Source: Nitrospirota bacterium (GTDB taxonomy: Bacteria; Nitrospirota; Nitrospiria; Nitrospirales; Nitrospiraceae). Taken from it: a stretch of 36,227 bases of DNA. Where the stretch lies: assembly GCA_030682135.1 (NCBI GenBank), contig JAUXQT010000103.1, positions 1 through 36,227 on the forward strand. Reading direction: 5' to 3'. The first letter of the stretch is position 1. Each line of letters begins with the position of its first letter. The notes beneath the pieces are model-generated. The model worked only from the letters and a program-made list of their open reading frames with translations. It was not told the origin of the DNA and ran no database searches. The translations under genes and the position numbers were made by a program. This document shows, piece after piece, positions 3,295 to 26,379 of the stretch.

Positions 3295-4866
3295 TTACTC
3301 TAACCACTTCTGCCACCAGGTGGCGTTCCGCGGTCCTTTTCTCACATGATACGAGATCCCGTGCAGCTTATCCCAATCCAGCTGCACATGCCCACCTGTT
3401 GCCTCGTGGAGTTTTTGCCAGGACTCGAGGAGATTCAGACAGGCATGGTCGATATGACGGAGGGAGGTGAACCGGATCTGCAGATCCGCGAGGGGAGGAA
3501 CCCCTTCCAGGGCTGTGGCTAAACGGGGAAGGCTGACAAAGGTGCCGATCCCCATCAATTGCAACGTCAGTTTGCCGTTTTCCGGATCATGCTCAAAATG
3601 GGTTTCGAGGTTCTGGGTGGTATAGAGCAGCTTCGCCATGGCCAGCCCGATGCCGATTAACACGCCGGTGAGCAGGTTCGTCGCCACGATGGTGCAGAGC
3701 GTGGCTCCGTAGATGAGCACCTCGCTCCTTCCGTACCGTTTCAGCTCCTTCACGACACCCACGTTTATGAGTTTGTACCCGGTAAAGACGAGCACGGCGC
3801 CAAGCGCGGCGGTGGGGATCATCCGCAAGATGGCCGGAAGGAAGAAGACAAAAAGTAGCAGCCATCCCCCATGCAGGAGGGTCGCGGTGCGAGACCGCGC
3901 GCCGGCTTCCACATTGGCGGCGCTGCGCACGATGACGCCGGTCACAGGCAGGGCGCCAAGCAATCCGCAGAGCACATTGCCGGCTCCCTGCGCGAAGAGT
4001 TCCTTGTTATAACGCGTGCGGGGACCGGTGTGGAGTTGATCCACCGCAGTGGCAGAGAGCAGGGTTTCGACGCTCGCGATCAATGCGAGTGCCAGCGCCT
4101 CGCCGATGATGGCTGGATCCATGAGGAATTGCAGTGAGTGAAGCGAGGGCAACTGTACGATCGTGAGTAAGTTGTCACGCACCTTCACATGGGCAATGTC
4201 GAGATTCAAGGACATGGCCGCCGCGGTGGCGAGCGCGACACCGATGAGGACCGAGGGAATGGCCTTGAGCATCCGGGGGGCATAGAGATTCCACAAGACG
4301 ATGGCCACGATCGTGAGCAGGCCGATCCTTCCGGCCAGGTGATGATTCAGCGGCGTGGCGTCATCGGCGACTAACCCTTTCCAGAACGCGGAGGGAAGGG
4401 TGAGGAGATTGGCGAGCCCGGATCCTCGGGGCGTATCGTCGATCATGATATGGAACTGGCTGGCGAAAATGAGGACGCCGATCCCGGCCAGCATGCCATG
4501 CACCACGGCGGGTGAAACGGCGCGGAACCATTGTCCCAGCTGCAGCCAGGCCCACTTCATCTGGATGATTCCGGCCAGCAGGACCACGATGGCCAGCTTT
4601 TCCATCCCATGTTCTTGAATGATTTCGTAGACGATGACGGTCAAGCCCGCGGCTGGCCCGCTGACTTGGAGCGGTGACCCGGCCAGCGCGCCGACGATCA
4701 GTCCTCCGATAATGCCCGTGATGATGCCGGTGGCGGGCGGCGCGCCGGAGGCAACGGCGATACCCATGCAGAGGGGGAGGGCGACCAGGAAGACCACGAC
4801 CGAGGCAAAGGCATCGTGGCGGAGGTCAACCCAGCGGCTGGAAGATGGTTGCGTGGACGGTCCCAT
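3295..4866 (-). CDS. SulP family inorganic anion transporter
   Basis: A 523-aa inner-membrane protein of the SulP (SLC26) family, which moves sulfate, bicarbonate or related anions, often with Na+ or H+. The N-terminal segment DAFASVVVFLVALPLCMGIA followed by GAPPATGIITGIIGG and SGPAAGLTVIV is the classical SulP signature of the first membrane helices. About 10-14 hydrophobic segments follow up to residue ~420, including SVETLLSATAVD and the conserved NKELFAQGAGNVLCG. The last ~100 residues look like a short STAS-type domain (FVSLPRLATALEGVP...IDHACLNLLESWQ). The mix of features is closer to the BicA/YchM type than to plant sulfate carriers, but substrate cannot be read from sequence. Directly repeated boxes lie just upstream of its start, and a lipoprotein gene follows 11 bp after its stop. 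Confidence 0.92.
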   Translation of the reverse strand: MGPSTQPSSSRWVDLRHDAFASVVVFLVALPLCMGIAVASGAPPATGIITGIIGGLIVGALAGSPLQVSGPAAGLTVIVYEIIQEHGMEKLAIVVLLAGIIQMKWAWLQLGQWFRAVSPAVVHGMLAGIGVLIFASQFHIMIDDTPRGSGLANLLTLPSAFWKGLVADDATPLNHHLAGRIGLLTIVAIVLWNLYAPRMLKAIPSVLIGVALATAAAMSLNLDIAHVKVRDNLLTIVQLPSLHSLQFLMDPAIIGEALALALIASVETLLSATAVDQLHTGPRTRYNKELFAQGAGNVLCGLLGALPVTGVIVRSAANVEAGARSRTATLLHGGWLLLFVFFLPAILRMIPTAALGAVLVFTGYKLINVGVVKELKRYGRSEVLIYGATLCTIVATNLLTGVLIGIGLAMAKLLYTTQNLETHFEHDPENGKLTLQLMGIGTFVSLPRLATALEGVPPLADLQIRFTSLRHIDHACLNLLESWQKLHEATGGHVQLDWDKLHGISYHVRKGPRNATWWQKWLE

Positions 4867-4875
4867 GGTAGTGGG

Positions 4876-4904
4876 CTCTAGATGAATACGACTACTCTAG
4901 ATGA
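4876..4904 (-). promoter_or_regulatory. Paired direct repeats upstream of the SulP gene
   Basis: Read on the minus strand, TCATCTAGAG occurs twice (4904-4895 and 4885-4876), exact in all 10 bases and 19 bp apart start to start. The proximal copy ends 9 bp before the SulP start codon. Each copy contains the palindrome TCTAGA. The placement close to two helical turns apart suggests a pair of binding sites for a dimeric regulator or an RNA-level signal covering the ribosome-binding site, which is otherwise poor. The repeat itself is visible; the role is inferred. Confidence 0.45.
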
Positions 4905-4958
4905 GGAAGGCGAGGAGCCCAAGAGAAATATGAGAAGCGACAGGGTTGTGCGGGCCGT

Positions 4959-5054
4959 CTAGATTGGCTCGATGCCATATCTCGGGGCTGTGATGCATTC
5001 ACAGCAGTTTGGTCCGGTCAGTTTTCTTCGATCGCAAAAAATGAAACTGTAATC
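4959..5054 (-). pseudogene. Decayed copy of the 3' end of the HTH/zinc-ribbon regulator gene
   Basis: The minus strand encodes SFIFCDRRKL...ITAPRYGIEPI followed by a TAG stop. This parallels the C-terminus of the intact regulator gene at 8364-8675 (GFIFRDRRKL...ITAPRYGID). At DNA level TCGATGCCATATCTCGG is identical at 4969-4985 and 8383-8399, and homology continues to about 5054. The first zinc-ligand pair CPDC has become QSDY, about five codons are missing before ITAPRYGI, and no HTH part is recognisable upstream. It is therefore most likely a relic. Both copies are on the same strand and flank the DUF2339-DUF3999 genes. Confidence 0.7.
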
Positions 5055-5084
5055 CGATTGGCTTCGAGGCAATTCCTTGTTTTC

Positions 5085-5113
5085 TTGCTCGGTAACTCTC
5101 CCTATGCTGTAAT
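5085..5113 (+). promoter_or_regulatory. Candidate sigma-70-type promoter for the DUF2339-DUF3999 pair
   Basis: TTGCTC (5085-5090), a 17-nt spacer and TGTAAT (5108-5113), preceded by an extended -10 TGC. The -35 is weak (3 of 6 consensus bases), the -10 is good (5 of 6). Transcription would begin near 5120, giving a ~28-nt leader before the ATG at 5148. This supports that start over the TTG at 5058, which would lie upstream of the promoter. Confidence 0.4.
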
Positions 5114-5147
5114 CCACATCAGCATTGAACCCCTTCGAGGACCGCGT

Positions 5148-7085
5148 ATGGACAATGGATTATTCTTTCCGTATTCGTTCCTCAGCCTCGCCATTCCCGT
5201 CATCGCTATCTGGGCATTTATACGAGTCCGGAGGCTGGAGCAGCAATTCCGTGACAGGCCGGCACCCACTGGAACGGTTGGCAGCAAAGATCAGGAATCG
5301 AACGTTCTTGCTCGACTGCATTCGCTGGAGCGACAGGTTGAGGAGCTGCGGAGCCAACTTGAGGGCCTGTCGGCGGGAGAACCGCTCGCGGCGTCTACTG
5401 CAGTGTCACCACCGGCATCGAGTCAGACGTCCGTAGGCGTAACTCCTGCGCCGATCAGACCTCCTACACCTGTCACTGCTACATTGGGGGCTTCCAAATC
5501 CGCGCAATCCACGTCTCAACCCATCGGGCTCGACATTGAACAACTGATCGCGGGACGCTGGTTGAATCGAATCGGCATTGTCGCCCTCCTACTCGCGGTC
5601 TCGTTCTTCCTGAAATATGCGTTCGATAACGATTGGATTGGTCCACGCGGGCAAGTCGCGTTGGGATTGTTGAGTGGAGCAGCTGTTCTGATCTATAGCC
5701 AATGGCTCGTGCGTCGGGGCCATGACGACTTTGCGAATCGCATTGCCGGTTTGGGCGGAGGGGTGTTGTATCTTTCGCTGTTCGCCGGTGCGAATTATTA
5801 CCATCTCTTTCCTCTCTCACTGGCCTTCGGTGGCATGGCTATCGTCACGGCGACCCTCGTGGTCATTGCCGTCAGACGTGATTCCCAATCGATGGCCCTG
5901 GTGGCGCTATTGGGCGGTCTGTTGACGCCGGTGCTCCTTAGCACAGGGCGGGATGCACCGGTTGAACTCTTCACCTATCTTGCCCTGCTGAACGCCGGGG
6001 TATTGCTTGTCGCGCATACGCGTCAATGGTCGAAGGTGGAATGGCTGGCGTTTGCTGGCACGATGCTCTACTTCTGGGGATGGTGGAACGGCTATTACCA
6101 TGAGGATCGACAAAATTTGACGTTGGGGTTCGCCTCGGTGTTCTTCTTGGAGTTTGCCTTGTTGCCGGTGTTACTGGCGCGGCGCGCCGGCACACTCGAA
6201 GCGGCGCAAACGATGTTGGTCGCCCTCAACGCCCTCGGCTATCTCGCGGCCTTGCATAGACTGTTGTATGCCGAGCATCGGTGGAGCTTGTCCTGCATGC
6301 TTCTGTTGCTGGCGGCTCTGCACCTGGCCGTTGCGCGACGGGTGCCGACGTCGGAAGAGAGTTCTTCGCTCGTGCGTATGCTTTTCGGGGGATTGGCGTT
6401 GACGTTTGTGACGCTGGTGATTCCGGTCCAGTTGGACGGAAAATGGATGACCATGGCTTGGGCCATCGAAGGAGCTATTCTGATCTGGGTCGGCGTTCGC
6501 GCGCAGGTCTCCCATCTCCGTTGGGCCGGACTGGCGCTCTTTACGGTAGTGGCGAGCCGCCTGATGCTGTTTCCGATCCACGGCGTCCAGCCCGTGCTGC
6601 TCAATCAGCGTTTCGGACTGTTCGCGGTCGTGATTATCTGTTTTGTAGCAGCCCTATGGCGTTCTCGTTCACTCAAAAGCGACCTCAACGAGGAAGAGCG
6701 TCTGGCATTCGGTGTGGTGGGGCTTTGTGCCAACATTGTGACGTTGTGGGCGCTATCGTGCGAAGTCTGGGATTATTGGAGCCCGTCGGGATTTGAGGAT
6801 GAGCGGCGTTCTGATTTAGCGCAGCAACTAGGGCTCTCCCTCTTATGGACTACTTATGCGACTGCGCTCGTGGCGGCAGGTGTACGGTGGACGAACAGGG
6901 CGCTGCGCTGGCAGGGACTTGCCCTACTCGGTCTGGTGGCAATAAAAGTCTTCTTGTACGACCTTTCGTCGTTGGAGGCCATCTACCGCATCGTCTCATT
7001 CATGGTGTTTGGCCTTTTGCTGCTCGGCGTGTCGTTTTTCTATCAACGGGCGTCGCCCAGACATTCGGGCAAGGAGGTGCCGTGA
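5148..7085 (+). CDS. DUF2339 polytopic membrane protein
   Basis: A 645-aa protein. The ATG at 5148 has GAGG 7 nt upstream and opens directly into an N-terminal hydrophobic helix (FFPYSFLSLAIPVIAIWAF); the frame is open further upstream from a TTG at 5058, but that would add an untypical leader. Residues ~25-75 form a charged coiled-coil-like stretch (LERQVEELRSQLEGL) followed by a Pro/Thr/Ser-rich linker. The remainder is a long series of hydrophobic helices (roughly 15 or more) starting at GRWLNRIGIVALLLAVSFFL, the usual entry into the DUF2339 domain. No biochemical function is established for the family. The downstream DUF3999 gene overlaps it by 3 bp (GTGA), so the two products are made together and probably act together in the inner membrane. 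Confidence 0.88.
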   Translation: MDNGLFFPYSFLSLAIPVIAIWAFIRVRRLEQQFRDRPAPTGTVGSKDQESNVLARLHSLERQVEELRSQLEGLSAGEPLAASTAVSPPASSQTSVGVTPAPIRPPTPVTATLGASKSAQSTSQPIGLDIEQLIAGRWLNRIGIVALLLAVSFFLKYAFDNDWIGPRGQVALGLLSGAAVLIYSQWLVRRGHDDFANRIAGLGGGVLYLSLFAGANYYHLFPLSLAFGGMAIVTATLVVIAVRRDSQSMALVALLGGLLTPVLLSTGRDAPVELFTYLALLNAGVLLVAHTRQWSKVEWLAFAGTMLYFWGWWNGYYHEDRQNLTLGFASVFFLEFALLPVLLARRAGTLEAAQTMLVALNALGYLAALHRLLYAEHRWSLSCMLLLLAALHLAVARRVPTSEESSSLVRMLFGGLALTFVTLVIPVQLDGKWMTMAWAIEGAILIWVGVRAQVSHLRWAGLALFTVVASRLMLFPIHGVQPVLLNQRFGLFAVVIICFVAALWRSRSLKSDLNEEERLAFGVVGLCANIVTLWALSCEVWDYWSPSGFEDERRSDLAQQLGLSLLWTTYATALVAAGVRWTNRALRWQGLALLGLVAIKVFLYDLSSLEAIYRIVSFMVFGLLLLGVSFFYQRASPRHSGKEVP

Positions 7086-8335
7086 AACTGCTCGGGTGGC
7101 TGCTCAATTTCATGCTTCTGATCGGGGCAAGTGAGACGGCTGCCCAGGAGTCTGATCCCTGGCAGGCTTGGCAGTATTCGCGCCGCATACAATCGCAGAG
7201 CACAGCTGAGCCAAGCCTCGTCCGCGTTCCCCTGTCGACGGATGTTTATGCGCATGCGCAGCAGGACCTCGGGGATCTCCGGGTGATCGATGAAGCGGGG
7301 AGGGAAGTGCCCTTCATTCTTCATACGGCTCAAGGTGGACAGACTCGATCCTGGCGGAACGCGCCCCTCACAGACATAGGTTTTGTTCCTGGTCAGTTTA
7401 CCTATGCGATTGTCGACGCAGGTAGTCAGCAGGAGCCACATAACTTGCTGGAACTGTTGTTCAACGAGACGGATTTCTTCTCTTGGGTCGAGGTCGCTGC
7501 ATCGGATGATCGTACGACCTGGCGCATCATACGAGATCGTGCGCCGCTCTATCGGTTTCGTGAAGATGGAGTGGAGCGGGTGCCGAATGTGGCTTATCCA
7601 AAGACGTATGCCCGATGGCTACGAATCAGGGTCCTGGAGAAGGAAAAAAAGCTTCTCCCACGACAGGGCCGTGTCGCTCATGAGGTTGTGGAACAAGCTG
7701 AGCGTATGCCGGCCTCTGTGGTGCTCGAAAAAGTGGAGCCGTCTCCTCCGCACCAGAGTCAGTGGAAAGTAAATCTTGGGGATATGCCGCTCCCGCTGTC
7801 GGCCTTTCGGTTCGAAGCGGCGCAGCCGGAATTTCATCGCACTGTTCGTATCGCAACGAGCTCGGATGGGAAGAATTGGACGACTCGATGTCGCGGGGAC
7901 ATCTATAGGTACCAGTCTCTGCAAGAGATAGCCGGTGAGCCTCGCGATCGGTCCTCGCTCGAGATACTATGCCCTGAAACGCAGGCCAGGCTTTGGCGTG
8001 TAACGGTGTTGAATCGCGACGACGCTCCCGTTGTTGGTCTTCGCCTGATCTCCGAACAGCTCACGCGGTCGATCGTCTTTCGCCAAAATCAGGCCCATAT
8101 GTATCGTGTATTGTATGGTCATGGTAGAGCGAAGGCTGCGCATTACGATCTTGAACGGTTACTCCCAGGGACCGATCTGAAAACCGCTATGGTCGGTCAA
8201 CTGGGCTTGGAAATATTGACCGGAAACCATGTCAGTGCCGAGCCCTGGACCGAGCGACACCCTATCCTCTTGTGGGTGGCCCTTCTTATCGTGGTGGCCG
8301 TGCTAGGAGTCCAAGCTGTTCGCACGATCCGCTGA
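7082..8335 (+). CDS. DUF3999 exported membrane-anchored protein
   Basis: A 417-aa protein. The GTG at 7082 overlaps the DUF2339 stop (GTGA) and is preceded by an excellent AAGGAGGT; a longer in-frame reading from 6845 lies inside the DUF2339 gene and is rejected. An N-terminal signal peptide (LLGWLLNFMLLIGASETAAQ) is followed by WQYSRRIQSQ, a Ser/Thr- and beta-rich periplasmic region with two discoidin/F5-8-like stretches (FSWVEVAASDDRTTWRII and RTVRIATSSDGKNW). One C-terminal transmembrane helix follows (ILLWVALLIVVAVLGVQAV, about 392-410). This is the layout of the DUF3999 family, commonly encoded next to DUF2339. The two probably form an inner-membrane complex with a large periplasmic part; the role is unknown. 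Confidence 0.82.
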   Translation: MKLLGWLLNFMLLIGASETAAQESDPWQAWQYSRRIQSQSTAEPSLVRVPLSTDVYAHAQQDLGDLRVIDEAGREVPFILHTAQGGQTRSWRNAPLTDIGFVPGQFTYAIVDAGSQQEPHNLLELLFNETDFFSWVEVAASDDRTTWRIIRDRAPLYRFREDGVERVPNVAYPKTYARWLRIRVLEKEKKLLPRQGRVAHEVVEQAERMPASVVLEKVEPSPPHQSQWKVNLGDMPLPLSAFRFEAAQPEFHRTVRIATSSDGKNWTTRCRGDIYRYQSLQEIAGEPRDRSSLEILCPETQARLWRVTVLNRDDAPVVGLRLISEQLTRSIVFRQNQAHMYRVLYGHGRAKAAHYDLERLLPGTDLKTAMVGQLGLEILTGNHVSAEPWTERHPILLWVALLIVVAVLGVQAVRTIR

Positions 8336-8363
8336 TTCTTCCCTATTCCTTGCGGGACTCTAC

Positions 8364-8675
8364 TCAGTTAACCACTTGAACATCGATGCCATATCTCGGA
8401 GCGGTGATGCCTTCGCTGCGGCATGTGGGGCAGCGGCTCGGCCTGTTCAGTTTTCGTCGATCGCGAAAGATAAACCCGCAATCGGGGCAGACGGAGGGTT
8501 CGAGGATAAATCGGCGCGACGGGTCTCGAGCCACCGTTTTCACGACGTGAGGGAGGTGTTCTTCGACCTGGCGTTCCGGGATGCCCAGCATCTGGGCCAG
8601 CTGGTATGATGACAGTCTGGTACCGGTGATCAGCTCGATGATGCGCTGTCGTGGCGTCTGCCCTGGAGAGATCAT
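8364..8675 (-). CDS. HTH-zinc-ribbon transcriptional regulator (COG3357-like)
   Basis: A 103-aa protein. The ATG at 8675 begins MISPGQTPRQRIIELITG; a reading extended to 9326 would run antisense through the start of tldD and is not credible. Residues ~10-50 look like a small winged-helix/HTH (RIIELITGTRLSSYQLAQML...ERQVEEHLPHV) and residues 62-87 carry a zinc ribbon with two CxxC pairs (CPDC at 63-66, CPTC at 82-85). The family is predicted to regulate transcription; targets are not known. It is divergent from tldD with 93 bp between starts, so it could control tldDE, and convergent with DUF3999, 28 bp apart. A decayed second copy of its 3' end lies at 4959-5054. No strong ribosome-binding site is visible. 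Confidence 0.75.
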   Translation of the reverse strand: MISPGQTPRQRIIELITGTRLSSYQLAQMLGIPERQVEEHLPHVVKTVARDPSRRFILEPSVCPDCGFIFRDRRKLNRPSRCPTCRSEGITAPRYGIDVQVVN

Positions 8676-8768
8676 GAGGCGACATCGTAGGGGATGACAT
8701 CGGGAAAGCCAAGCCCAATGGCGGCCTGAGTTGAACGGCTCCGGTGCCTCTGTCAGGATACAGGTGCC

Positions 8769-10226
8769 ATGCCCAATTTGAATCAAGACGAACTCGCCGA
8801 ACTGGTACTCAAACGCGTGGTGGCTTCCGGAGCCGAGTACGGCGATATTCGCATCCTCGACAGCACAACCCAGACCATCAGCGGTGAAGATCGCCGCATC
8901 GACTCCATTCGGGATATGCAGGACAGAGGATTCGGCATCCGCGTCCTCTATCACGGAGCCTGGGGCTTTGCGGCCAGTTCGGTTCTGTCGCTGGAAGAGG
9001 CTCCTCGTGTGGCCGATCTGGCCATCGAGATCGCCAAAGGCTCTGCGTCGTTGGCGATCGACAAGGTGAAGCTTGCCGATGAGCCGGTCCATCGAGACCG
9101 TATTGTGACGGCCCGGCGGATCGATCCCTTTGCCGTCTCGCTTGAACGGAAAACCGCGCTGCTGCTTGAGACGATGGAGTATGTCCATCGTCAGGCCGGT
9201 ATCGTACGGAGCAGCGCGAGTCTGTGGGCCCGCCGGGACCGCAAGCTTTTTGTCTCGACCGAAGGCTCGCGTCTGGAGTTCGACCTCCTGGCCGTGAGCG
9301 GCGAGTACGATGCCACGGCGATTCATGACGGGCGGTTTGCCTCACGGACATTCAATACGCCGCATCTTCGGATGGGTTATGAATTGATCGAAGACGCCAA
9401 TTTCCTCGCCGAGGCTCCGCGCATCGCGTCGCAGGCCGTCGAAAAAGTGAAGGCGCCTACCACCGCGCCAGGCCTCTACGATCTCGTCCTCGATCCTGAA
9501 CACCTCTCGCTCACTATGCACGAATCGTGTGGCCATCCGAGCGAACTCGACCGTGCGCTCGGGTACGAGGCCAACTATGCCGGCACCAGCTTTCTTACGA
9601 CCGAGAAACGAGGAACCTTTCGATACGGTTCTCCGCACGTGAATCTTGTGGCCGACAACTGCGAACCGGAGACCCTTGCTGCGACCGGGTACGACGACGA
9701 CGGGGTGGCCTGCCAACGATGGGACATTGTGCGAGACGGTCTCTTCGTCGGGTATTGTACGAACCGAGAAGTGGCGCCGGTCATCGGCGAGACGCGCTCG
9801 CGCGGGTCCAATCGGGCGGACAGTTGGGGCAGCGTGCCCATCGTCCGCATCGCCAACGTCGGCCTGGAGCCAGGCACTGCCACTCTCGATGAACTGCTCG
9901 CCGGTATCAAGCGGGGCATCTATATCGAAGGCCACGGGTCCTACAGCATCGATCAACGGCGCTATAACTTCCAATTCGGCGGCGATGCCTTTTGGCTGAT
10001 TGAAAACGGGAAGCGGACCCATATGGTTCGCGATGTCGTTTATCATGGGATCACGCCGGAGTTCTGGGGCAGTTGCGACGGGGTCGCCGACCGGTCGCAC
10101 CGGAGGCGGTACGGGTTCATCACGTGTGGCAAGGGTCAGCCAGGCCAGTCGGGCTGGATGAGCCATCCGGCCTCTCACGCGCGATTCCGCAACGTCCAGG
10201 TTATCGGAGGGCAGGCGGGATCATGA
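8769..10226 (+). CDS. tldD: Metalloprotease TldD
   Basis: A 485-aa protein of the TldD/PmbA (U62) family. TldD and TldE form a cytoplasmic heterodimer; TldD carries the zinc site and degrades unfolded peptides threaded into the complex, and matures or removes some modified peptides (microcin B17, CcdA antitoxin in E. coli). The zinc motif HESCGH fits HExxxH at residues 251-256, and the third-ligand region ITCGKGQPGQ supplies Cys453. The length is normal for the family. The gene overlaps the partner gene by ATGA, which fits obligate co-expression. A divergent HTH/zinc-ribbon gene lies 93 bp upstream. AGGTG sits 4 nt before the ATG. No obvious RiPP precursor gene is near, so a housekeeping proteolytic role is the default inference. 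Confidence 0.93.
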   Translation: MPNLNQDELAELVLKRVVASGAEYGDIRILDSTTQTISGEDRRIDSIRDMQDRGFGIRVLYHGAWGFAASSVLSLEEAPRVADLAIEIAKGSASLAIDKVKLADEPVHRDRIVTARRIDPFAVSLERKTALLLETMEYVHRQAGIVRSSASLWARRDRKLFVSTEGSRLEFDLLAVSGEYDATAIHDGRFASRTFNTPHLRMGYELIEDANFLAEAPRIASQAVEKVKAPTTAPGLYDLVLDPEHLSLTMHESCGHPSELDRALGYEANYAGTSFLTTEKRGTFRYGSPHVNLVADNCEPETLAATGYDDDGVACQRWDIVRDGLFVGYCTNREVAPVIGETRSRGSNRADSWGSVPIVRIANVGLEPGTATLDELLAGIKRGIYIEGHGSYSIDQRRYNFQFGGDAFWLIENGKRTHMVRDVVYHGITPEFWGSCDGVADRSHRRRYGFITCGKGQPGQSGWMSHPASHARFRNVQVIGGQAGS

Positions 10227-24975: not shown

Positions 24976-26379
24976 CTATTTCCAGGTTCTGATATCAACG
25001 AAATGTCCCTCGACGGCGGCCGCGACGGCCATGGCCGGAGAGACGAGATGGGTGCGGCCGCCAGCTCCCTGGCGTCCTTCGAAATTACGATTGCTGGTCG
25101 AGGCGCAGCGCTCTCCCGGCTGAAGCACATCGGCGTTCATGGCCAGGCACATACTGCAACCGGCTTCCCGCCACTCGAAGCCCGCGTCCTTGAACAGGCG
25201 GTCGAGCCCTTCCTGTTCGGCCTGCTGTTTCACGAGGCCCGAGCCAGGAACCACCATCGCCCGGACTCCCGTGGCGACGCTTTTGCCCCTGGCCAATTGG
25301 GCTGCAAGGCGGAGGTCTTCGATGCGTGAATTGGTGCAGGACCCGATGAAGACCGTATCGATCTTGATATCGGTGATGGGCATGTTCGGGATGAGGCCCA
25401 TGTATTCCAACGCTCGCTCAGTCGACTGGCGCTGGTTGATATCGGTGATCGTCCGGGGGTCTGGTACCCGTTGATCGATGCCGGTGACCATCCCGGGGCT
25501 GGTGCCCCAGCTGACTTGCGGCGCGATGTCCTCGGCCTTCATCGTGACGGTCACGTCGTATGCCGCGCCCACATCGGTCTTGAAGTGCTGCCAGGCTTGT
25601 ACCGCCCGGTCGAACAGCATGCCCTTCGGAGCCAATGGACGGTCTTTGATATAAGCGACGGTCTTCTCGTCCGGCGCGACCATCCCGGCCCGTGCCCCGG
25701 CCTCGATCGACATGTTGCAGAGCGTCATGCGCCCTTCCATGCTGAGGGCGCGGATTGCCGAGCCGGTGTATTCGATGACATAGCCGGTTCCGCCGGCTGT
25801 GCCGATCTTGCCGATGATGGCGAGAATGACATCCTTGGCCGAGCAGAGTTCCGACAACGTGCCGTCGACGCGGACTTCCATGGTCTTGGGTCGTTTTTGT
25901 ACTAGACATTGGGTGGCCAGCACATGTTCCACTTCGCTGGTGCCGATGCCGAAGGCCAAGGCGCCGAACGCGCCATGCGTCGAGGTATGGGAGTCGCCGC
26001 ACACGATGGTCGTCCCTGGCAGGGTAAAGCCCTGTTCGGGTCCGATCACGTGCACCACGCCCTGGCGGATGTCGTTCATCCCGAAGAGGGTGATGCCAAA
26101 GTCGCGGCAATTTTCCTCTAGCGTCCGGATCTGTATCGCGCTGAGAGGATCGGCTATCCCCACGCTCCGGTCGGTCGTCGGGACATTATGATCCGGCACG
26201 GCCAACGTGGCGCCTGGGCGCCGGGGTCGTCGGCCAGACAGCTTGAGTCCTTCAAACGCCTGTGGCGATGTGACTTCGTGGACCAGCTGGCGATCGATGT
26301 AGAGCAGGGTGGTGCCATCCGGTTCTGCCCGGACGACATGGGATTCCCATATTTTCTCGAATAACGTCTGAGCGGCCAT
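24976..26379 (-). CDS. leuC: 3-isopropylmalate dehydratase large subunit LeuC
   Basis: A 467-aa aconitase-family protein carrying the 4Fe-4S cluster. Cluster ligands are Cys348 ([12 protein letters not shown]) and the pair Cys408/Cys411 (GCSMCLAMN). Other signatures: [35 protein letters not shown] (here [16 protein letters not shown]) and the C-terminal [17 protein letters not shown]. The start ATG has GAGGAG 5 nt upstream. A convincing -10 element and a dyad lie about 60 bp upstream, and a hairpin sits in the leader. No leuA or leuB is nearby, so the pathway is split in this genome. Confidence 0.97.

What the first reader, a model, noticed from the sequence alone, without database searches (positions are those of the whole stretch)
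4959..8675. A decayed duplicate of a zinc-ribbon regulator flanks the DUF2339-DUF3999 pair in direct orientation
The 3' end of the intact regulator (8364-8675, minus strand) recurs in degraded form at 4959-5054, also on the minus strand. Seventeen consecutive bases are identical (4969-4985 and 8383-8399), and the coding frame still reads FIF-DRRKL and ITAPRYGI. The first CxxC has been lost. The two copies bracket the DUF2339-DUF3999 genes as direct repeats, as expected if those genes entered by a recombination that duplicated the target gene, or if a tandem duplication was later trimmed. It suggests the regulator and membrane pair share a history.
Basis: partly seen in the sequence, partly recalled or inferred. 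Interest (0 to 1): 0.55.

Follow-up and report, generated by a model that had tools for sequence, protein, structure and literature searches.

The report
Scar of foreign defence-gene insertion
In this bacterium a pair of foreign membrane genes, resembling a known defence against membrane-cutting toxins, landed in the tail of a small regulator gene; the regulator survived with a patched tail while its original tail remains nearby as a decaying fragment.

Summary
The 3' end of the PF0610-like HTH/zinc-ribbon regulator recurs at 4969-5054 (86 aligned nt, 80% identity, in-frame 15-nt deletion; score 56 against a maximum of 32 in 2000 shuffles). Four close congeners hold the empty site: one intact regulator, no DUF2339/DUF3999 there. 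All four regulators end in GIEPI-stop, exactly like the relic; the intact window copy ends in DVQVVN-stop. So the relic is the regulator's original 3' end, stranded in place; the insert (about 5055-8382, 3328 bp) duplicated 101 bp of native sequence, and the intact gene borrows its last codons and stop from the insert. DUF3999 occurs in 1 of 32 congeners (this one). The DUF2339 protein groups with Acidobacteriota (100/100), and no regulator lies near any of 39 other DUF2339 loci. Regulator and pair meet by insertion, not shared history; the regulator's recurrent neighbours are TldD and a SulP transporter, and the insert now separates it from SulP. By published Pfam criteria the pair is an arc3A-arc3B module, which in Pseudomonas protects against phospholipase toxins. 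Recombination route and age remain open. Ordinary horizontal acquisition, unusually cleanly preserved.

The parts
4959..5054 (-). Relic: original 3' end of the regulator gene, with native stop codon (4959-4961), decaying; 4969-5054 is the part shared with the intact copy
5055..8382 (.). Inserted segment (3328 bp) absent from the four empty-site congeners
5148..7085 (+). DUF2339 membrane protein (PF10101), Arc3A-like, 645 aa, about 14 hydrophobic segments
   Evidence: PMC8926400 passages
7082..8335 (+). DUF3999 protein (PF13163), Arc3B-like, 417 aa, starts inside the stop of the previous gene (GTGA overlap), one C-terminal hydrophobic segment
8364..8675 (-). Intact regulator: PF0610-like winged HTH plus rubredoxin-like zinc ribbon, 103 aa
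8364..8382 (-). Patched tail: last codons (VQVVN) and stop of the regulator, supplied by the insert; native tail is GIEPI-stop
   Evidence: none of 41 relatives has this tail
8383..8483 (-). Right copy of the 101-bp duplicated native segment
3295..4866 (-). SulP-family transporter, next to the regulator in three of the four empty-site congeners (a remnant in the fourth) and in some other genera; now separated from it by the insert
8769..10226 (+). TldD-family peptidase, divergent neighbour of the regulator, marks the right native flank

Best explanation
A DUF2339-DUF3999 (arc3AB-like) cassette of foreign origin was inserted into the last third of the PF0610-like regulator gene of a bacterium whose ancestors had TldD - regulator - SulP in a row. 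Shown: the insert sits between two copies of the same 101 bp of native sequence; the left copy is continuous with the native downstream flank and keeps the native stop; the right copy is continuous with the native 5' part and takes its last codons and stop from the insert. The gene therefore stayed whole while its former 3' end was left as a fragment that has since lost a CxxC, 15 nt and about 20% of its identity. Inferred: the join arose by illegitimate, one-ended capture (strand invasion or template switching that re-copied about 100 bp of the target; about 0.45 likely) rather than by an integrase or a transposon. Inferred: the pair then acts on its own, probably (about 0.6) as an envelope defence against phospholipase damage as Arc3 does in Pseudomonas; the regulator is not its partner.
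For: Empty site in 4 of 31 other congeners, the four nearest by regulator identity (94-97%), with flanking genes at about 89-99% amino-acid identity apart from a SulP remnant (78%) in G011; all four end in GIEPI-stop, as the relic does. DUF3999 in 1 of 32 congeners. DUF2339 groups with three Acidobacteriota rows, 100/100, best identity 51%. The duplicated right part is as close to congeners (92-96 of 101) as the rest of the gene (179-184 of 190-192), so it is the lineage's own sequence. GC3 0.66 and 0.59 for the pair, 0.66-0.77 for eight other genes of the window (weak). No Pfam integrase or transposase among the 35 main ORFs scanned, no tRNA. PF10101 E 1.4e-93, PF13163 E 3.5e-28.
Against: The relic differs at 17 of 86 sites from the intact copy, more than expected for a neutral branch younger than the split from the nearest congeners (four-fold distance 0.08-0.33 pairwise) and more than the adjacent flank (6-8 of 96 against three congeners, 22 of 96 against G011), so the event may be older, or imported from an unsampled congener, or the copying was error-prone. 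No direct evidence fixes the recombination mechanism. Two borderline matches between the insert's left end and native flank (p about 0.02 each, 8 tests) hint at a more complex junction. No function was tested.
Confidence: 0.85

Rival explanations
1. Site-specific integration: a circular element carrying a 3'-end copy of the regulator integrated by an integrase, restoring the gene, and later lost its integrase and everything but the pair.
For: Restoration of the target gene's 3' end next to the insert and a leftover original end at the far side are what such integration leaves (recalled knowledge).
Against: No integrase or tRNA in the window; the 3.3-kb insert holds only the pair; the right copy is the lineage's own sequence over its whole length; no second insertion with a partial regulator copy in 41 relatives' loci.
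Confidence: 0.12
2. Tandem duplication first: the regulator was duplicated in tandem, the pair landed between the copies, and the left copy was then trimmed to its 3' end.
For: Direct orientation of the two copies; the relic has already lost 15 nt.
Against: Needs two or more events; no duplicated regulator in any of 41 relatives' loci; no trace of the rest of the gene at 5055-5147.
Confidence: 0.15
3. The insertion happened in another, unsampled congener and this genome received the finished arrangement by homologous recombination over the conserved flanks.
For: Relic more diverged than the neighbouring sequence; distances to congeners vary between neighbouring genes (TldD to G017 0.076, DUF1295 to G017 0.327), which suggests mosaicism.
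Against: No DUF3999 among 31 other congeners; flanks resemble the empty-site congeners on both sides.
Confidence: 0.2
4. Chance similarity or assembly artefact.
For: The genome is a draft of 113 contigs.
Against: Score far outside 2000 shuffles; relic tail equals the native tail of four other genomes; an artefact would be expected to give identical copies, not 80% with an in-frame deletion.
Confidence: 0.02

Closest known systems
Arc3 (arc3A-arc3B, PA5114-PA5113) of Pseudomonas aeruginosa, PMC8926400 (passages read)
   Same: Adjacent DUF2339 and DUF3999 genes in one orientation; polytopic membrane protein plus a protein with a C-terminal membrane helix
   Different: About 14 hydrophobic segments here against 35 predicted in P. 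aeruginosa Arc3A; no cysteine in the DUF3999 signal region where the paper predicts lipidation; no esterase or aas gene seen beside it; function untested here
PF0610-like winged-HTH/zinc-ribbon proteins (PF21476 + PF23470)
   Same: The regulator matches both domains above their cut-offs
   Different: Tail after the zinc ribbon is replaced by insert sequence; tails vary freely among relatives
Insertion with duplication and restoration of a gene's 3' end (genomic islands; recalled)
   Same: Intact gene at one boundary, orphan 3' end at the other, direct orientation
   Different: No integrase, no tRNA, 101-bp duplicated segment of own-lineage sequence
Homology-facilitated illegitimate recombination (PMC3240628, start of abstract seen in a search listing)
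   Same: One homologous and one illegitimate end would allow foreign DNA to be added at a short native match
   Different: Neither natural competence nor the joint was tested here

Membership tests
Arc3A-Arc3B defence pair | Arc3A homologue classified under PF10101 (criterion of PMC8926400) | tested here: met
   PF10101 E 1.4e-93, 315 bits against cut-off 33.6
Arc3A-Arc3B defence pair | Adjacent Arc3B homologue classified under PF13163 | tested here: met
   PF13163 E 3.5e-28, 99 bits against cut-off 30; genes overlap by 4 nt
Arc3A-Arc3B defence pair | Large number of transmembrane segments in Arc3A | tested here: met
   14 hydrophobic segments by a Kyte-Doolittle count; rough method
Arc3A-Arc3B defence pair | N-terminal lipidation of Arc3B as predicted for P. 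aeruginosa (not a criterion of the family in the paper) | tested here: not met
   Read by eye: the N-terminal stretch of the DUF3999 protein has no cysteine (sequence)
Arc3A-Arc3B defence pair | Protects against phospholipase toxins | not testable with these tools
   needs an assay
PF0610-like HTH/zinc-ribbon regulator | Both N-terminal HTH and zinc-ribbon domains | tested here: met
   PF21476 55.2 bits (cut-off 33), PF23470 39.8 bits (cut-off 26)
Integrase-borne genomic island | Integrase or recombinase gene in or beside the insert | tested here: not met
   none among 35 main ORFs scanned in the window
Transposon or IS insertion | Terminal inverted repeats and short target duplication | tested here: not met
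   no inverted repeat pairs the insert ends; duplication is 101 bp
Ku-dependent end joining | Ku gene in the genome | tested here: not met
   no Ku (PF02735) in G000; 1 of 32 genomes of the genus has one

The most novel reading that the evidence does not exclude
The 3' end of this conserved regulator gene served as a gene-sparing landing place for a foreign envelope-defence pair without any integrase: a template-switch type of capture re-copied about 100 bp of the target so that the gene kept working, and the patched tail was tolerated because the tail of this protein is unconstrained. If this is a general route, similar orphan 3' ends should mark many integrase-free acquisitions.
Probability: 0.15. 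Interest if true: 0.5.

Novelty: new member of a known kind. Interest (0 to 1): 0.3.

Why it matters
It is a base-resolved scar of horizontal gain: both breakpoints, the polarity of the event and the rescue of the target gene can be read from one sequence and four empty sites. It shows an arc3AB-like pair, rare in this family (a DUF2339 in 5 of 147 genomes), arriving by lateral transfer, and it warns that adjacency of a regulator and a membrane operon can be a collision, not a partnership.

Tried and rejected
Longer duplication: no regulator homology in 5055-5147 (p 0.32). Terminal repeats or shared ends of the insert: eight comparisons, best p 0.018 and 0.023, not significant after correction; one of them, GATTGGC(T)TCGA just after the relic matching the native flank just before it, is kept as a hint of a second partial tandem copy. 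Donor search: the DUF3999 protein gave no relative in genome contigs and none in plasmids; DUF2339 gave 28 loci. Regulator travelling with the pair: 0 of 39 DUF2339 loci and 0 of 6, though two of those six are among the 39, two others are from one genome, and the loci from whole genomes have only about 1.5 kb of flank. PADLOC and NCBIfam: no model for the pair. Promoter scan: nothing at the junctions. Paper search for 3'-end-restoring islands returned none. Tandem duplication by transformation (PMC3784515, abstract and outline read) makes far longer duplications (about 100-900 kb) and was not used as a model.

Full report
WHAT IS THERE. The window holds, from left to right, a SulP-family transporter (3295-4866, minus), an intergenic stretch, a DUF2339 gene (5148-7085, plus), a DUF3999 gene (7082-8335, plus; its GTG start lies in the GTGA overlap with the previous stop), a 103-aa regulator (8364-8675, minus) and a TldD-family peptidase (8769-10226, plus). 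The regulator matches PF0610-like_N and Zn_ribbon_PF0610 above both cut-offs.

THE OBSERVATION. An independent repeat search of 3500-10000 lists 5002-5054/8431-8483 (family D1) and 4969-5005/8383-8419 (D3) among the direct repeats. Aligned with gaps, 86 nt of the relic face 101 nt of the intact gene: 17 differences (12 transitions, 5 transversions; codon positions 6, 3, 8) and a 15-nt deletion that keeps the frame. The local score is 56; 2000 dinucleotide shuffles gave a mean of 18.7 and a maximum of 32. In the whole genome the relic region matches only itself and 8383-8483.

POLARITY. A search of 61 genomes (31 other congeners among them) with 4900-5157 hit four congeners besides the window's own genome, G009, G011, G017 and G021 (one search repeats it on the 32 genomes of the genus with the same result). 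In each, the sequence that flanks the relic here is joined directly to a single, intact regulator. Synteny is conserved: ABC-F, epimerase, DUF1295, small lipoprotein-like ORF, SulP, regulator, TldD, PmbA, with exceptions: G021's contig ends upstream of the regulator, before TldD; G011 keeps only a SulP remnant; G009 lacks the stretch between part of SulP and part of ABC-F. No DUF3999 was found in any of the 31 other congeners. All four regulators end APRYGIEPI-stop. The relic ends APRYGIEPI-stop. The intact window copy ends APRYGIDVQVVN-stop. The left fragment is therefore the gene's original 3' end, still joined to its native downstream flank, and the intact gene is the patched one: its last five codons, one base of the codon before them, and its stop come from the insert. 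Tails after APRYGI vary freely among 41 relatives' regulators, and none is VQVVN, so the patch is likely harmless (inference).

THE EVENT. The insert is about 5055-8382 (3328 bp). The segment present on both sides is 101 bp (8383-8483); there is no further regulator homology at 5055-5147. The right copy is as close to the congeners as the rest of the gene (92-96 of 101 against 179-184 of 190-192), so the extra copy is this lineage's own sequence, not something brought from afar. No integrase or transposase family was found in the 35 main ORFs scanned with Pfam, and no tRNA in the window; no inverted repeats pair the insert ends; the genome has no Ku gene. I favour one-ended illegitimate capture that re-copied about 100 bp of target; this step is inferred, with rivals listed. 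None of 41 relatives' regulator loci shows a second partial regulator copy (best score 30 against 56 here), so nothing suggests a hotspot.

ORIGIN OF THE PAIR. DUF3999 occurs in 1 of 32 genomes of the genus and 9 of 295 genomes of the phylum sample, the other eight at 22-29% identity. DUF2339 occurs in 5 of 147 family genomes, the four others at 24-47% identity. In a tree of 37 rows (three of 40 candidates, under 300 aa, were left out) the window protein groups with three Acidobacteriota rows with full support (100/100; nearest 51% identity), and DUF3999 is the next gene in those three (35-44% identity). GC3 of the pair is 0.66 and 0.59, against 0.66-0.77 in the eight other genes measured, a weak sign in the same direction. 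The donor itself was not found.

WHAT THE PAIR DOES. PMC8926400 (passages read) names the neighbouring DUF2339 and DUF3999 genes of P. aeruginosa arc3A and arc3B, reports that the proteins associate and that Arc3A prevents lysophospholipid accumulation under attack by the phospholipase effector Tle3, and identifies homologues by PF10101 and adjacent PF13163. Both criteria are met here. PMC12663445 (passages read) confirms the role of arc3A against lipase effectors. Against a full match: fewer hydrophobic segments (about 14), no cysteine for lipidation in the DUF3999 signal region, no aas neighbour among the genes scanned. I put an envelope-defence role at about 0.6; it was not tested.

REGULATOR AND PAIR. 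The regulator is in 130 of 147 family genomes, the pair is not. In 41 relatives' loci (about 1.5 kb of flank, some cut by contig ends) a TldD hit is seen in 21, a SulP hit that begins next to the regulator in 9, from five genera, and a C-terminal SulP remnant in 2 (counted by eye from the listings). In this genome the insert separates regulator and SulP. None of 39 other DUF2339 loci has a regulator hit. So nothing here makes the regulator the partner of the pair.

AGE. Four-fold site distances to congeners are 0.08-0.33 depending on gene and genome, while the relic differs at 17 of 86 sites from the intact copy and has 14 differences found in no congener; the adjacent 96-bp flank differs at only 6-8 sites from three of the congeners and 22 from G011. 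This is more decay than a simple young insertion predicts. Import of a finished arrangement from an unsampled congener, an older event with losses elsewhere by recombination between the repeats, or error-prone copying would each explain it. I leave this open.

Noticed in passing
window 5056-5073 and 4962-4978: The first bases after the relic (GATTGGCTTCGAGGCAAT) resemble the native flank just before it (GATTGGC-TCGATGCCAT); p 0.018 in one of eight tests, perhaps the start of a second tandem copy at the junction.
   Followed up: partly
L004 1895-2029 and L094 1819-1947: Two relatives of different genera (G011, G237) keep only the C-terminal 43-45 residues of SulP (residues about 466-510) next to the regulator, so SulP seems to have been lost more than once leaving a similar remnant.
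   Followed up: no
L042 (G016), 4369-6075: About 1.7 kb lies between the regulator and TldD in this congener, and TldD is not seen within 1.5 kb in several others, so the 5' side of the regulator is also a place of gain and loss.
   Followed up: no
L039 (G009), 4244-6192: In G009 the SulP gene (residues 1-374) runs into a partial ABC-F gene (residues 1-300): a deletion of the genes between, or a misassembly of a 71% complete genome.
   Followed up: no
L083 and L084 (G009 contig 25, 28323-31760): A very large DUF2339-like protein (open frame 1329 aa, 27% identity) that the tree places far from the window's pair.
   Followed up: partly
window 24976-26379: A stand-alone aconitase-family gene (467 aa) with a MEKHLA-domain gene beside it.
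   Followed up: no
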